This document shows positions 36,689 to 43,320 of a stretch of 64,000 nt of DNA, in pieces. Every line of letters begins with the position of its first letter. Position 1 is the first letter of the stretch. The notes beneath the pieces are model-generated. The model was not told where the DNA came from, did no database searches, and was given only the letters and a program-made list of their open reading frames with translations. This stretch comes from Microbotryomycetes sp. JL201. Lineage: Eukaryota; Basidiomycota; Microbotryomycetes. Made by a program: the position numbers and the translations under genes. The stretch spans positions 62,001 to 126,000 of the forward strand of contig JAQYUZ010000030.1 in assembly GCA_033819885.1 (NCBI GenBank), in the 5' to 3' direction.

Positions 36689-37204
36689 ATTTCAGTGAAG
36701 TGAAAGCGAAAAAAAAAGAAAAAATCCACCTGGGCGAACAAGTCTAATGCAACTTTAAATCGGCCGAGCGGAGACCGGGTTCGCGGAGTGACACTGCGGG
36801 GTAAGCGGGGATGACCCAGCGACGGTCTTCGACTGATCTATTCATCGTTTGAAGCATCTGTGGCGAGAGATACAGGTACGCTACGGTCCCGTCTCCTGAG
36901 GCGAGAAAAGAAGCAATATTTTCATTCTGGCTCTACAAGCCCTGCGGCAAAATTGAAGTTCGACGACGGCTCGGAAATGACCACTGGCTCGAGAGTTCGT
37001 GAGGGATGCGAGGTGCAGGCTGCCGAATTGCAACGAGCATAGTGTGGGGAGCAAGCTGGCGCGCGGGGCAATTTGAATTCCGGGCGGATTCCGGGGGATT
37101 TCGTTTTGCCGTTTTTTTTTCATCAGCACTACCTCCTGGAGCAACGCTTCATCCGTACTGTACACATCTCGTAGAAACGCTCGATGTTGAATGAGAGTGA
37201 TCAC
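36689..37204. other. Intergenic region upstream of the beta-glucosidase
   Basis: Includes the beta-glucosidase promoter, with an A-rich run around 36708-36726. A minus-strand frame of 141 codons crosses the right part but only because it reads into the decayed TFB3 fragment. No independent gene seen. Confidence 0.4.
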
Positions 37205-37320
37205 CGGGCGGCAGCTATTTTTGTCAGCGTCCGAAGGCCAGCGACGAACGCTTGATGGCCTTTTCTCCAACCTCCTCGACGCGCAGCCACCGTCATCACT
37301 TTTCATTCTTGCTCTCCAGC
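37205..37320 (-). pseudogene. Decayed duplicate of the 3' end of TFB3
   Basis: About 115 bp closely resemble 40335-40448, the last coding stretch of TFB3, in the same orientation. Shared blocks include cagcgtcc, ccagcgac, tgatggc, cctcgac and gccacc-tcatcactttt. By eye roughly three quarters of positions agree. The copy does not keep the TFB3 reading frame and has no upstream TFB3 exons, so it is a gene fragment. The two copies flank the 2-kb palindrome as direct repeats about 3.1 kb apart. Confidence 0.75.
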
Positions 37321-37714
37321 CTCATCAGCGATAACAGTTGAAGACTGACTTTGACCGAGCGACATAGTGAGCAAGTTGCAGACGCCGAGGACATTCTCAT
37401 CCCGCTTACGCGTCGATCAGCTCGGGACCATCGAGTCTTACGAACGGGCCAGAATGATCCACAGCTTATCCGCCATGCCGGAAGTCTGGATCTTACGAAC
37501 GAGCCAGAGGGTCTCACAGCTCACCCGCCATGCCCGAAAATGTCGCGCATCCAATCGATGGCGTCCCACTAGCTCCTGAGTAAGTTGTTGTGCCTCTCGA
37601 GCCCGACGAGCAAGCTGAGCACTGCTATTGCTGCAACGACGCGACTGATCCGAGTGCTGTGCGCAACGCAGCTCAAAGAATGACTCACTTCGAAGCTCGA
37701 GAGCAGCACAGAAG
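37321..37714. repeat. Intergenic stretch with an imperfect 55-bp tandem duplication
   Basis: Two adjacent units, 37436-37490 and 37491-37537, both begin tcttacgaac and share gccag and the block ccgccatgcc at the same spacing, giving a period of 55 bp. The rest of the stretch has no supported gene. Confidence 0.6.
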
Positions 37715-38946
37715 ATGGCATCGCAGCATGATGACTTGAGCTCGGACGATGACGACGATAACGATGAGCAGTTGCGAGCCTGCAGTTGATGAAACGCTCA
37801 GGTTCATTTGAGCGCGATAAGGTGTTCAGGAAGAAGCCGCCGGGCAGAAAGACGGCAGGTCTGCACACCGCCTGCTGCTCGCATTGCGCAAGTCGGTGAC
37901 ATCAGAAAAGACGGACTTGCAGGCCGAGCTGGACCTCGCGCTCGTGGAAACTGGGCTGGACCCCGCCACAGTCAAGCCTGGTGAGCTGGCAGTTGCGTCA
38001 AAAGTATGACTCCCCCACTGATAGTGCCTGCAGAGTTCATCGCCGTCGCCACAGACAAGGCTCGGGAGATCAAGGCAATCCTCTTGACGCCGATTGGCGA
38101 GGCCAGGGCCAAGGTTGGAACGCTGGCGTTCTGGTCTCGGTGCCTGGCGCCCGCCGTGCCCGACCTCGCGGTCTTTGCATCAAGCTCGCAAGAGGCGATC
38201 GTCGGGTTGGCTCGAGGGGCAAGACCCAGCGACATCCTCCAAGAGCTTGAGCGCCGAGACGCCAGAGATGCCGTATACGTCTGGCAGGGTAAGCCGAAAC
38301 GCTCAGTCGGGCCGAACCCATAGTAAGGAACGGGCACCGGCATTACACCGGCATCACTCTGTGCCTCGTGGACAGACTGTCTTCGGATGAAAGCCACATG
38401 CTGGTGGACCCTGTCCGAAGACATGTCACAAGACCTGTGCTGATGCGCTGCCGGCAGTCGAAGCCACAGCAGATCGTCGAGAAGTTCTTCGCGGCATTGC
38501 CCGGCGCCGGCGACAAAGATACCTTGCAATATGTTCCTCTCCTGGCTCTGAGATGGCCTGAAGAGCTAGTCAGAAACGCAACATGTCCAGACGCGGTGGA
38601 GTCTTTCGTCATGCTGTGTGCAGGGTCGTGGACGACCGACTTCGGACGGTACTATGAAGACATCACCAAAGAAGTCGAGCTCGGCCGCGCGGCTCAGCGT
38701 TTCACAGGGCTCAACGTCGAGATCCCCGTCATCGAATCTCACTCGAGCTCGCTGGCCATTGCTCTGAAGACCCGAAGAGACACCGTCAGGAGGCATCTTG
38801 TTTGGGTCAAGCCAAATGACGAAAACAAAGCACGCAGTGGCGAGACACTGTTGTGCTTCTGTGTTTGGCATTGCGCTTCCCAAACAAGATGCGCACTGAC
38901 GTGGTCTCTTCGGGTCTTCAGAGCAATCGCCAGCGAGCTCGAGTGA
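37715..38946 (+). CDS. Unrecognised intron-containing gene, left arm of the palindrome
   Basis: Function unknown. The reliable exons read LLLALRKSVTSEKTDLQAEL through ETGLDPATVKP, intron, PAEFIAVATDKAREIKAILL, GTLAFWSRCLAPAVPDLAVF, LARGARPSDILQELERRDAR, AVYVWQ, intron, HYTGITLCLVDRLSSDESHM, intron, QQIVEKFFAALPG, LALRWPEELVRNATCPDAVE, SFVMLCAGSWTTDFGRYYED, ITKEVELGRAAQRFTGLNVE. Introns fall at about 37980-38024, 38290-38321 and 38405-38458, and all three are matched in the other arm. The last 25 codons run across the palindrome centre and read antisense sequence of the other copy; the stop is at 38946. The start is uncertain: an acidic first exon at 37715 (MASQHDDLSSDDDDDNDEQ) is possible but I could not join it in frame. 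Confidence 0.5.
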
Positions 38947-39840
38947 GATACGATAACGGGGAGCTCGACGTTGAGCCCTGTGAAACGCTGAGCCGCGCGG
39001 CCGAGCTCGACTTCTTTGGTGATGTCATGATAGTACCGTCCGAAGTCGGTCGTCCACGACCCTGCGCACAGCACCCTGCGCACAGCATGACGAAAGACTC
39101 CACCGCGTCTCGACATGTCGAGTCCCTCGCCAGCTCTTCGGGCCATCGGAGGGCCACCAGGGGGACGCATCGCAAGGTTTCTTCGGCGCCAGAGAACTCT
39201 GCGAGACATTTCTCGACGATCTGCAATGGCCTAGACTGCCGGCAGCGCATCGGCGCATTTCTAGTGCCATGTCTGAACAAGGACTCACCGACATGTGGTA
39301 GTCGTACGAATGCAGCCGGTCTTCTAGGCATAGGGTGATGCCGGTATAGACATCGGTGCTCCTTCCTGACCACGGGCAGGGCCCGAGGTGGCACCTCGGC
39401 TCACCCTGCCAAACGTAAAGGCCACCTCCGGCATCTCGGCGGTCGGCCTCGTCCAGGACGTCGCTGGGTCTTGCCCCTCGAGCCAGCTCGACGAGCGCCT
39501 CTTGCGACGTTGAAGCAAACACCGCGAGATCGGCCACGACGGGCGCCAGGCCCCGAGACCAGAACGCCAGCGTTCCAATCTTGGCCTCTGCCTCGACAGT
39601 AGGCGTCGAGAGGATCGCATGGATCTCCCGAGCCTTGGCTTTGGCGACGGCGATGAACTCTGCAGGCGCTGTCAGTTGGGGAGTCAAACTTTTCACGCGT
39701 CTGCCAGCTAACCGGATTTGACGGTAGCGGGGTTCAGTCCAGCTTCCACGCGCGAGATGTCCAGCTCGGCTTGTGAGGTTGTCGCTCCTGAGGTCACCGA
39801 CTCGCGCAAGGCCAGCAGTAGGCGCGCCTTGCCAACTGCC
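37870..39840. repeat. Giant imperfect palindrome (inverted repeat, about 0.97-kb arms, almost no spacer)
   Basis: The two arms match as reverse complements all the way to a 6-nt centre: cagtg (38835-38839), gcgaga, cactg (38846-38850). Checked anchors include tttggg 38801-38806 with cccaaa 38879-38884, and gcctgcagagttc 38026-38038 with its complement at 39655-39667. The sum of paired positions stays near 77,685 and drifts by 8 at the outer anchor because of small indels, including a 14-bp tandem duplication in the right arm. By eye about four of five bases pair. The outer ends fade around 37,840-37,880 and 39,840-39,870. No target-site duplication, transposase or terminal motif was found. 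Confidence 0.88.
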
Positions 39841-39865: not shown

Positions 39866-40331
39866 CCTCCGGCTCGTGAGACCTTGAGCATTTGACCGAT
39901 TTTTAGAATGGAATCACTGATCGTTTCTATTTCTCCAAAAAGGAGCTGACTGTGCAAGCGCGGGCAAACGAGCATTCCACGGAACGAACAAATATCGTGC
40001 ATGGCAGACCAAAAAGCAGAGACTGCGAGGGTCGCGAAAGATTACGAGCCATCTTTCAGACCGGCGCGCAGATTGCGTGTACGGCGGCGACGAGCCGAAA
40101 AGCTGGTAATGGAGGATCAACGAGGCCGGTGTATTTTTGTCCAGCAAGTGGTCTTACGCTACTGTTTGATTGCTAGAGAGCGTAGATAGGCCTTGCGAAT
40201 GGTGGCTAGTTGCGTCGGTAATTGAATCATTTAAGCCAGACTCCATTGCTGCTCGTCGTTAGAATGACCGGGCGTTCTTTCAGCACTTCATTGTCCTGTT
40301 ACAACAACCCAGAATCAAATCGAGATGACAA
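39866..40331. other. Intergenic region between the palindrome and TFB3
   Basis: Holds the TFB3 3' flank and the upstream side of the right palindrome copy. No further gene, RNA or repeat seen. Confidence 0.4.
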
Positions 40332-41608
40332 TCACGCAGCCACCACTTTCGGCAGCGTCCAAAGCCCAGCGACAGACGCTCTGATGGCTTTTTCCCAAAC
40401 TTCCTCGACTACAAAGCCACCTTCATCACTTTTTTCTTGCTCTACAGCCAGACCGGTATCTTCGTCGTAACCTTGGGCGTCGCCCCTCTTCCGGAGATCG
40501 TACAATTGCTCATATGAGTCGTACCAAGACAGTTCCGCCAGGATATCTTCTGTTGCGACCTCGTCCGAGCTCGTCGCTCCGGATTTGAGACCTGAAAAGA
40601 ATCGCATCGAGGCTGACAAGTCGTTGCCGCCGGCGCCCTTGTTTGTGGCTGTTGACGCCAGCCTGGCCGACGACCTTTTGAGGGCCGAAGCTCTGGCCTG
40701 CTTGATCAACGAGTCTGCATTGACGTTGCTAGATTCGAGAGCTTCTAGTACAGCCTTTCGTTCTTGTTCTTTCGCCTTGCGGTCCTCTTCGTCCCATTTT
40801 TCGTACGTCCGCCTCGCTTCTTCCCGTTCTTGCTTCTCAAGCTCGTCCAACCTTTTCAAGGCTTCTTTGTCTCGTTGCGACTGTTCTGCGTTGGCTTCAA
40901 TCGAGTCTCTGTTTTCTTCGAGGTATCGCCTGATCGCCGCCTCAGTTTCTTCAACGTCTTGCTCTTGGATAAGCTTGAACGTCCATGCTTCTACTTCTTC
41001 CAAGTACTTGTCGTACGCTTCAGCCGAGACAAAGTCCTGCTCAGTCTTGTTGAATCTGTTATTACGGAGTGTAAGAGCAATTTCCGACAGTTTGATGATG
41101 AAAGCGTGTGCTTACGTCCTGGCCATTTTCTTGCGGATTGCCAACTCTTTCTGCACCTTGAGGTCCTCGAATCGTTGAGGCTTGAAATGGGCTTTGCGAA
41201 TGACAGTGTGGCAAACTGGACAGGGCTCGGGTCCGAGCGAAAAGATCCTGTCCATGCAAGACTCGCACCTGATCCGAGCAAACATGTGAGCATTCGACGA
41301 TGCGCCGAGAGTGGCAGAGAAATGAAGCAGGCTGACATCTTGTGGTAGCACGAGCTGACCATGAGCCTCAGTTTCGGGTTCCTGAACCTGTCAGTCTTGC
41401 ACACAGGACACACGTCGTCCGGCGACGAGTATTCCGGGATGTTGGCGTCATCGTCTACATCTGGGATAAAGTCCAGAGTAGCTCCTCTTGCTGAAGGGTG
41501 GCCTCCGCCTCCGCCGAGTGTGCGCGACGAGCTCGGACCAGAACCAGCCGAGGACGAGCCGAGACCACCTAGGCGTGATTTGCCCATGATGAACCTTGGC
41601 GTCGTCAT
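40332..41608 (-). CDS. TFB3: CDK-activating kinase assembly factor / TFIIH subunit Tfb3 (MAT1)
   Basis: Tfb3/MAT1 bridges the Kin28-Ccl1 kinase to core TFIIH. The N-terminal C3HC4 RING finger is split by an intron: DVCPVCKTDRFRNPKLRLMV, SSCYHKM, then RCESCMDRIFSLGPEPCPVC. Next are RKAHFKPQRFEDLKVQKELA and IRKKMART, intron, FNKTEQDFVSAEAYDKYLEE, a long charged coiled-coil (EAWTFKLIQEQDVEETEAAI, ALKRLDELEKQEREEARRTY), and a C-terminal region ending LWTLPKVVAA at 40332. This is the order and size of fungal Tfb3. The start is MTTPRFIMGKSRLGGLGSSS at 41608, or the internal ATG at 41587. A decayed copy of its 3' end lies at 37205-37320. Confidence 0.92.
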
Positions 41609-42043: not shown

Positions 42044-43320
42044 ATGGGTCAAGAGCGTAAAGTGTGCATCATCGGAGGGCAAGTGCCACTGTTTTCGCGT
42101 GCCGGCGGCCATCGACGTCATTCCACTCGGCTGACATTACGTGCACTCGACCTGCAGTGGCATACAAGGCGTGTGCACAGCCTACTACCTGACCAAGCAT
42201 GGATGCAAAGATGTCACGATTCTAGAGGGTTCTTGCATCGCGGCAGGCGCGTCTGGTAAAGCTGGCGGGCTGCTCGCGCTGGACTGGCACGGACCAAACA
42301 CCAGCTCGCTCGCAGCACTGTCGTACAGCCTGCACAAGCAATTGGCAAAAGACCACGACGGACAATCCAAGTGGGGATACAGGGCACTCGACACGCTTTC
42401 GGTATCTGCAGATTTGACTCTATCGAGATCAGGAAAGACCAACAAGCCGATCAAGGATCAAGACTCGTTCCAATGGCTCAACAAGGACGCATTGCGCGGA
42501 GGATCAGTCTTGGGTAGCAGAGAAACAACCTCCCAGGTCCATCCAGGACTGTTCACGCCAGCCATGGCCGAGATTGCACAAAAGCAAGGAGCGAAAATCG
42601 TCATTGCCACCGCAAAAGGACTGTCTCGCGAAGCAGATGGAACTATGACAGTCTCGGCAGGGACACAAGATGGAGAACAATTGTGTATCGCAAATGTAAC
42701 AGACACCGTCATTTGCGCTGGACCATGGACAGGCAAGCTGCTGCGCAAGTTTGGTATCGACGGGGGACGCGCGGGCGACATCGTAGGCAGTCGCGCGCAT
42801 TCCGTGGTCATTGCACCTCCAGAAGGAAAAACGCTACCGGCCCAGGCGCTTTTCACTTCCGTCAAAGAGGGCAACCGTTTGCACGAGCCCGAGGTGTATT
42901 GCAGGCCGGACAACACTGCGTACGCGTGTGGCCCGACGGATAGAAGCGCCTTGCCAGAGTTGGCCAAGGACGTCAAAGTCGATGACAAGGCAGTAGATTC
43001 GATTATTGCCCAGGTGGGAGGGCTCGCACCAGAGTATCTCAAGGTCGAGCGGGGTGGCGCTCGAGTAGTAGCCAGGCAGGCTTGCTATCTGCCAGTTGGC
43101 TCCGGTGATCCTGTGATCGACAAACTCGCCAACAATGTATATGTCGCAGCAGGTCATTCTTGCTGGGGGATTCTGTGGGGTGAGTTTCGGCGCGATTGCC
43201 ACTGCGACATGAGCCACTAACGCTTTTCCGTGTGCAGGACCGGCGACAGGTTATATCATGTCTGAGCTGATTTTGAGCGGCAAAGTTTCGTCCGCAGACG
43301 TGAGTGCGCTAGGTGCTTGA
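42044..43320 (+). CDS. TDA3: FAD-dependent oxidoreductase, Tda3-like (DAO family)
   Basis: The first exon MGQERKVCIIGG is cut inside the dinucleotide-binding loop. A GC-AG intron (donor gcaagt, 42079-42157) joins it to GIQGVCTAYYLTKHGCKDVT, rebuilding the GxGxxG FAD motif IIGGGIQG. The remainder, ASGKAGGLLALDWHGPNTSS, GYRALDTLSVSADL, VHPGLFTPAMAEIAQKQGAK, TDTVICAGPWTGKLLRKFGI, SVVIAPPEGKTLPAQALFTS, PEVYCRPDNTAYACGPTDRS, ARVVARQACYLPVGSGDPVI and VYVAAGHSCWGILWG, is a DAO-type flavoprotein close in layout to yeast Tda3. The final exon gives PATGYIMSELILSGKVSSAD, stop at 43320. Three exons. The natural substrate is not known. Confidence 0.85.

What the first reader, a model, noticed from the sequence alone, without database searches (positions are those of the whole stretch)
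37870..39840. Giant gene-bearing palindrome with a 6-nt centre
Two arms of almost 1 kb are reverse complements down to the centre at 38842/38843 (cagtg-gcgaga-cactg). Each arm carries a copy of the same three-intron gene, tail to tail. Palindromes this long with nearly no spacer are normally unstable; here the arms differ at perhaps one base in five, which may be what keeps the structure stable and shows it is old. Any read-through transcript from either side would fold into a hairpin of hundreds of base pairs, a natural source of double-stranded RNA. This is the strongest unexplained structure in the window.
Basis: seen in the sequence. Interest (0 to 1): 0.75.

Follow-up and report, generated by a model that had tools for sequence, protein, structure and literature searches.

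The report
Old palindrome of mirrored gene copies
Two diverged copies of an unknown gene sit tail to tail and form an imperfect palindrome of about two thousand bases; it is most likely an old inverted gene duplication that was partly re-copied between its arms, an unusual but known kind of structure.

Summary
The palindrome is real. Arms 37869-38839 and 38846-39824 align over 989 columns (792 identical, 169 mismatches, 28 gap columns) around a 6-nt loop. The five inverted repeats of 40 nt or more that the scan lists are all pieces of it. Each arm carries the same interrupted reading frame, tail to tail. Ks falls from 0.50 (outer exons) to 0.065 (tract). Best reading: an old tail-to-tail inverted duplication, evolved partly as coding sequence, later homogenised over one tract by arm-to-arm conversion or template switching. 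The right copy has a frame-shifting 14-bp tandem duplication; neither copy has a stop before the centre. RIP (88 transitions, 81 transversions) and read chimerism do not fit. The strand would fold almost wholly into one hairpin, but transcription across the centre and small RNAs could not be tested. The gene matched nothing in the libraries searched; no fungal genomes were available. New member of a known kind; modest interest.

The parts
37869..38842 (+). Left arm (L): partial gene copy on the + strand, running toward the centre
   Evidence: alignment to the right arm
38843..39824 (-). Right arm (R): second copy on the - strand, tail to tail with L
38840..38845 (.). Six-nt centre GCGAGA between 5-bp perfect stems
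38589..38781 (+). Homogenised tract, left side: 7 mismatches of 193 aligned sites (plus the 14-nt gap)
   Evidence: best-segment search, (LRT 42.3, 0 of 30 permutations reach it)
38904..39110 (-). Homogenised tract, right side; includes the extra 14 bp
38782..38903 (.). Palindrome tip, both sides: 11 mismatches of 56 aligned sites, like the outer arms (p 0.87) and unlike the tract (p 0.0003)
37821..37980 (+). L exon 1 (open part; true start not found; arm homology begins at 37869 inside it)
37981..38033 (+). L intron 1 (53 nt, GT-AG; inferred)
38034..38288 (+). L exon 2
38289..38323 (+). L putative intron 2 (35 nt; the acceptor that matches R's, at 38327, would leave L one base out of the frame shared with R)
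   Evidence: one-base gap at 38344
38324..38403 (+). L exon 3
38404..38457 (+). L putative intron 3 (54 nt, GTGGAC donor; in frame if retained)
38458..38946 (+). L exon 4: open through the centre, TGA at 38944-38946 inside the opposite arm; about 34 codons lie past the axis
39660..39712 (-). R intron 1 (53 nt, donor GTTAGC; inferred)
39366..39404 (-). R putative intron 2 (39 nt, GT-AG; open if retained)
39236..39288 (-). R putative intron 3 (53 nt, donor GTGAGT)
39059..39087 (-). 14-bp tandem duplication (2.1 copies, 100% identical) inside the homogenised tract; shifts the frame of R
   Evidence: single copy in L; frames
37193..37321 (-). Frame-broken relic of the 3' end of the neighbouring MAT1 gene, in the same orientation as the true gene
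   Evidence: 101 of 131 columns identical to 40322-40449; score 63 against a maximum of 19 for 100 shuffled queries

Best explanation
An old inverted (tail-to-tail) duplication of about 970 bp of one gene, with a near-zero spacer. It runs from inside exon 1 to a point before the gene's stop codon. The two arms then diverged to about 20%, for part of that time under coding constraint. Later a tract of about 193 bp, 61-254 nt from the axis, was homogenised by arm-to-arm gene conversion or template switching. A 14-bp tandem duplication in the right arm, inside that tract, broke the right frame. Shown: the arms, the three divergence classes, an excess of synonymous change in the outer exons, the frameshift, and that the frames run through the centre. 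Inferred: the duplication mechanism (replication-based foldback or template switching), the order of events, and that copying, not chance or selection, made the tract alike. It probably has no job as a palindrome; divergence and the imperfect tip make it tolerable.
For: Mismatch classes: outer 151/712, tract 7/193, tip 11/56; tip against tract p 0.0003, tip against outer p 0.87. Best segment found without preset borders: LRT 42.3, reached by 0 of 30 permutations; no 195-site window as clean in 5000 shuffles. Outer exons before 38589: Ks 0.50, Ka 0.18 over 189 of 192 codons (p 3e-7); tract: Ks 0.065, Ka 0.028 over 64 codons. Synonymous and non-synonymous change fall together (about 8- and 6-fold), which argues for copying rather than protein selection. 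No stop among the 272 gapless R codons read in L's register. The diverged tip between axis and tract suggests that the near-zero spacer is older than the homogenising event. A direct relic of the MAT1 3' end (77% identical) beside L shows other copying at the locus. Precedent: inverted-repeat paralogue pairs in nematodes (the worked examples are divergently oriented; convergent ones are named in the abstract) with only part of the genes near-identical, conversion proposed (PMC1803023, abstract, sections 6 and 7).
Against: No relative with a single-copy ancestor could be fetched, so the order of events rests on divergence alone. The tip class has 56 sites; on codons it shows only 1 of 10.7 synonymous but 10 of 43.3 non-synonymous changes, so its match to the outer class holds for bases, not for synonymous sites. 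The constraint signal is weak in exons 1 and 2 alone (Ks 0.30, Ka 0.165, p 0.044). Codons were compared in L's register, which drops R's own extra bases; leaving out the doubtful start of exon 3 changes little (Ks 0.49, Ka 0.18). The MAT1 relic is direct, not inverted, so one simple event does not explain the neighbourhood. Constraint on RNA or DNA in the tract could also lower its divergence.
Confidence: 0.7

Rival explanations
1. Two-step palindrome: the paralogues diverged apart with a normal spacer, and a later foldback or deletion joined them, making the centre and the clean tract in one event.
For: Neither frame has a stop before the centre, as if the true 3' ends were lost. The 14-bp duplication lies in the tract, 23 bp inside its outer edge, like a junction scar. 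At synonymous sites the tip is not clearly diverged (1 of 10.7).
Against: A recent foldback should leave the tip the most identical part; it differs at 11 of 56 sites, like the outer arms. The lack of stops is also expected if the original duplication ended inside the gene.
Confidence: 0.15
2. Proto hairpin-RNA locus: transcription through the centre gives a long duplex that is diced and silences a parent gene elsewhere.
For: Predicted fold -1551 kcal/mol with 829 of 832 pairs across the axis; the inner 462 nt alone fold at -421. A 63-bp exact run lies in the arms. Inverted gene duplication as a source of small-RNA genes is an existing model in plants (PMC3237417, search listing only).
Against: Folding follows from any palindrome. 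No transcript or small-RNA data and no genome in which to look for a parent gene, Dicer or Argonaute. The outer exons show an excess of synonymous change.
Confidence: 0.06
3. Both copies are dead fragments of a dispersed gene or element family, with the clean tract left by conversion from another copy (not exclusive of the best explanation on how the palindrome arose).
For: Homology starts inside exon 1, no start codon in the open exon-1 frame, no stop before the centre, R frameshifted, L in frame only with a 35-nt intron. Weak constraint in exons 1 and 2 (p 0.044).
Against: Over the outer exons, 54 of 148 synonymous against 66 of 419 non-synonymous sites differ (p 3e-7), so constraint lasted for part of the divergence. 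No further copy in the window.
Confidence: 0.2
4. Assembly or amplification artefact (read folded back on itself).
For: Chimeric reads can make palindromes (general knowledge).
Against: 169 mismatches and 28 gap columns with a codon-position pattern cannot come from a folded read; the last 150 nt of the outer flanks are no more alike than shuffles.
Confidence: 0.02

Closest known systems
Inverted-repeat paralogous gene pairs of Caenorhabditis (PMC1803023; abstract and sections 6 and 7 read)
   Same: Homologous genes in opposite orientation; part of the pair near-identical and the rest diverged; gene conversion proposed there
   Different: Their F44E5.4 locus has 2207-bp arms, 99.7% identical, with a 126-bp spacer, in divergent orientation, and is followed across species; here about 80% outside one tract, a 6-nt centre, convergent, no relatives available
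Template-switch homogenisation of inverted-repeat arms in yeast (PMC8604942; abstract read)
   Same: Arms made more alike inside coding DNA
   Different: There the repeats are short; here the tract is about 193 bp, so ordinary conversion is as likely
Origin-dependent inverted-repeat amplification (PMC4689423; abstract read)
   Same: A replication-based route to interstitial inverted copies
   Different: It yields inverted triplications; here two arms only
Inverted-duplication model of microRNA gene origin (PMC3237417; search listing only)
   Same: An inverted gene copy can give a hairpin transcript
   Different: Described in plants; no small RNA shown here

Membership tests
Inverted-repeat paralogous gene pair with arm conversion | Homologous genes in opposite orientation forming the arms | tested here: met
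Inverted-repeat paralogous gene pair with arm conversion | Part of the arms far more alike than the rest | tested here: met
   7/193 against 151/712 mismatches
Inverted-repeat paralogous gene pair with arm conversion | Structure kept across species while sequence changes | not testable with these tools
   no genome held for the window; the open collections are prokaryotic, viral, phage or plasmid
Hairpin-RNA / siRNA locus | Transcript able to form a long duplex | tested here: met
   prediction only
Hairpin-RNA / siRNA locus | Transcription through the centre and diced small RNAs | not testable with these tools
   no RNA data
RIP-mutated duplicate | Divergence nearly all C-to-T / G-to-A transitions, raised TpA/ApT | tested here: not met
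   88 transitions, 81 transversions; TpA/ApT 0.36 (L) and 0.52 (R), 0.47 in the window
Foldback transposon | Target-site duplication and terminal repeats at the outer edges | not tested
   only noted: outer edges lie inside exon 1 and the next 150 nt are unrelated
GIY-YIG nuclease (considered from VYVWQ...HYTGITLCLVDRL; motif recalled) | Match to the family profile | tested here: not met
   no Pfam match to the spliced L protein at E 10, HMMER filters on; single-sequence models too poor to use (mean pLDDT 38.7, 32.7)

The most novel reading that the evidence does not exclude
A fungal (presumed) gene palindrome caught on the way to a hairpin-RNA gene: both coding frames are failing, while a duplex of about 193 bp is kept near-perfect by arm-to-arm copying or by selection for pairing, and silences a parent gene elsewhere.
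Probability: 0.05. Interest if true: 0.6.

Novelty: new member of a known kind. Interest (0 to 1): 0.27.

Why it matters
It is a natural example of how a long palindrome with almost no spacer can survive: divergence at the tip and outer arms with one homogenised tract between. It would allow tests of arm-to-arm conversion and of dsRNA production in this organism, but the class of structure is known.

Tried and rejected
Rejected: RIP (88 transitions, 81 transversions; no TpA excess). Read-chimera artefact. Extension of the palindrome beyond 37869/39824 (last 150 nt of each flank: score 9, inside the range 7-13 of 20 shuffles; longer flanks inverted: 50.5 against a maximum of 52.5 in 40 shuffles). 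Named protein family: five exon or frame pieces and the spliced L protein against Pfam (the one match, GIT_SHD E 1.9, 8.6 bits, is below its 21.1-bit cut-off), one R frame and the spliced L protein against solved structures (best E 1.8), part of L exon 4 against viral contigs (10 pattern matches, none confirmed), and 38293-38943 against plasmids, phages and bacterial and archaeal genomes (212 pattern matches, none confirmed). PHROGs, NCBIfam and PADLOC were not searched. Rfam: 0 matches in the window at gathering scores. Single-sequence structure models had mean pLDDT 38.7 and 32.7 and were not searched. Six literature searches (8 to 15 titles listed each, 5) listed no fungal case of this exact form by title and abstract start; this is no proof of absence. 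Faults of my own: the query named Lex34 was translated in the wrong frame, so its tblastn rows are not used. One search looked for a DDX intron by a guessed string that was absent. The self-BLAST at E 0.05 did not list the MAT1 relic; it rests on targeted alignments, and the shuffles kept only blocks of two bases. In one search the long gapped chains are mostly chance; only the stretch near 37193-37321 is used. On checking, one search showed that the count '201 codons' used 198, that exons 1 and 2 alone show weak constraint, and that the tip has few synonymous changes; for this I lowered the best explanation from 0.72 to 0.70.

Full report
Observation. The left arm (37869-38839, + strand) aligns with the reverse complement of the right arm (38846-39824) over 989 columns: 792 identical, 169 mismatches, 28 gap columns; score 589 against a maximum of 20 in 50 shuffles. 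The centre is CAGTG-GCGAGA-CACTG. Among inverted repeats of 40 nt or more, the scan of the window lists five, all pieces of this palindrome, and a self-BLAST of the window at E 0.05 lists only this pair. The finding is real and far from chance.

Setting. The window reads as eukaryotic. Nine ORFs were scanned and seven had Pfam matches (one below its curated cut-off), among them a RING finger plus MAT1 (CDK-activating kinase assembly factor) gene at 41608-40332 on the - strand, an FAD-dependent oxidoreductase at 42141-43220, a glycosyl hydrolase family 1 piece at 35556-34843, a major-facilitator transporter and a helicase. Two MAT1 introns placed by hand are 60 and 68 nt. A fungus is my inference from this gene content. 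No genome is held for the window, and the sequence collections open to me hold prokaryotes, viruses, phages and plasmids, so true relatives could not be compared.

Gene in the arms. Both arms carry the same interrupted frame, L on + and R on -, tails meeting at the centre. L joins as 37821-37980, 38034-38288, 38324-38403 and 38458-38946. Intron 1 is clear in both arms. Intron 2 would be 35 nt in L or 39 nt in R, shorter than both MAT1 introns. L keeps the frame shared with R only with an acceptor four bases upstream of the one that matches R's, because L lacks one base at 38344. Intron 3 has the donor GTGAGT in R and GTGGAC in L, where it is in frame if retained. No start codon lies in the open part of exon 1, and the arm homology begins inside that exon.

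The centre cuts the gene. Neither copy has a stop before the axis. L reads about 34 codons into the opposite arm to TGA 38944-38946. The matching frame on the other strand ends at the mirror position, 38741-38739. So the last part of the L protein would be coded by the antisense of its own sister copy. R carries a 14-bp tandem duplication at 39059-39087 that shifts its frame; the shifted frame stops just past 38921.

Divergence comes in three classes. Outer arm 37869-38588: 151 mismatches of 712 aligned sites. Tract 38589-38781: 7 of 193. Tip 38782-38839: 11 of 56. Tip and outer do not differ (p 0.87); tip and tract do (p 0.0003). The tract borders came from a best-segment search (LRT 42.3; 0 of 30 permutations reached it), and no 195-site window as clean arose in 5000 shuffles.

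Codons. Read in L's register, the outer exons before 38589 give Ks 0.50 and Ka 0.18 (54 of 148 synonymous against 66 of 419 non-synonymous sites, 189 of 192 codons used, p 3e-7); the tract gives Ks 0.065 and Ka 0.028 (64 codons); the tip has 1 of 10.7 and 10 of 43.3 (18 of 19 codons). With the earlier border at 38612 the values were 0.47 and 0.17 outer, and 0.065 and 0.065 for 38612-38806. Against my reading: exons 1 and 2 alone give only Ks 0.30, Ka 0.165, p 0.044, and the tip is diverged in bases but not in its few synonymous sites. No stop occurs in 272 gapless R codons in this register. Because synonymous and non-synonymous change fall together in the tract, copying between the arms explains it better than protein selection. 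Because the tip is as diverged in bases as the outer arms, the near-zero spacer seems to be older than that copying.

Mechanism. I read this as an old inverted duplication that ended inside the gene, followed by divergence and by one later arm-to-arm conversion or template switch over about 193 bp. Yeast template switching homogenises the arms of short repeats in coding DNA (PMC8604942, abstract), and nematode inverted-repeat gene pairs show near-identical parts beside diverged parts, with conversion proposed (PMC1803023, abstract and sections 6 and 7; those authors also consider selection for a structure-based function). The first step may be replication-based, as in ODIRA (PMC4689423, abstract); this is inference. 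A relic of the 3' end of MAT1 at 37193-37321, 101 of 131 columns identical to 40322-40449 and with a broken frame, lies beside L in direct orientation. It shows further copying at the locus that one simple event does not explain.

Stability. In wild-type yeast, Alu inverted repeats with 12-bp spacers and 86% or 75% identity lower the rate of gross rearrangements about 58- and 1087-fold against identical ones, and mismatches near the centre lower recombination; in single-stranded DNA the protection is much weaker (PMC10164571, passages). The 80% outer identity and the diverged tip here fit the first point by analogy only.

dsRNA. The 1956-nt + strand folds at -1551 kcal/mol with 829 of 832 pairs across the axis; six randomly placed 1956-nt pieces of the window gave -659 to -702. 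Any palindrome would do this. Transcription across the centre and small RNAs are not testable here.

Identity of the gene. No relative was found in Pfam, solved structures, viral contigs, plasmids, phages or prokaryote genomes. A GIY-YIG-like look (motif recalled) was not backed by any profile, and single-sequence structure models were too poor to use.

Verdict. Observation confirmed; interpretation partly supported; a new member of a known kind, interest 0.27.

Noticed in passing
window 37193-37321 and 40322-40449: A frame-broken, 77% identical direct copy of the MAT1 3' end lies about 3.1 kb from the true one, just outside the left arm.
   Followed up: partly
window 37436-37483 and 37491-37538: A 48-nt direct repeat pair, 81% identical, 55 nt apart, between the MAT1 relic and the left arm.
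   Followed up: no
window 38843-38946 and 38739-38842: The frames that cross the axis end at mirrored stop codons, so each tail is coded by the antisense of the sister copy.
   Followed up: yes
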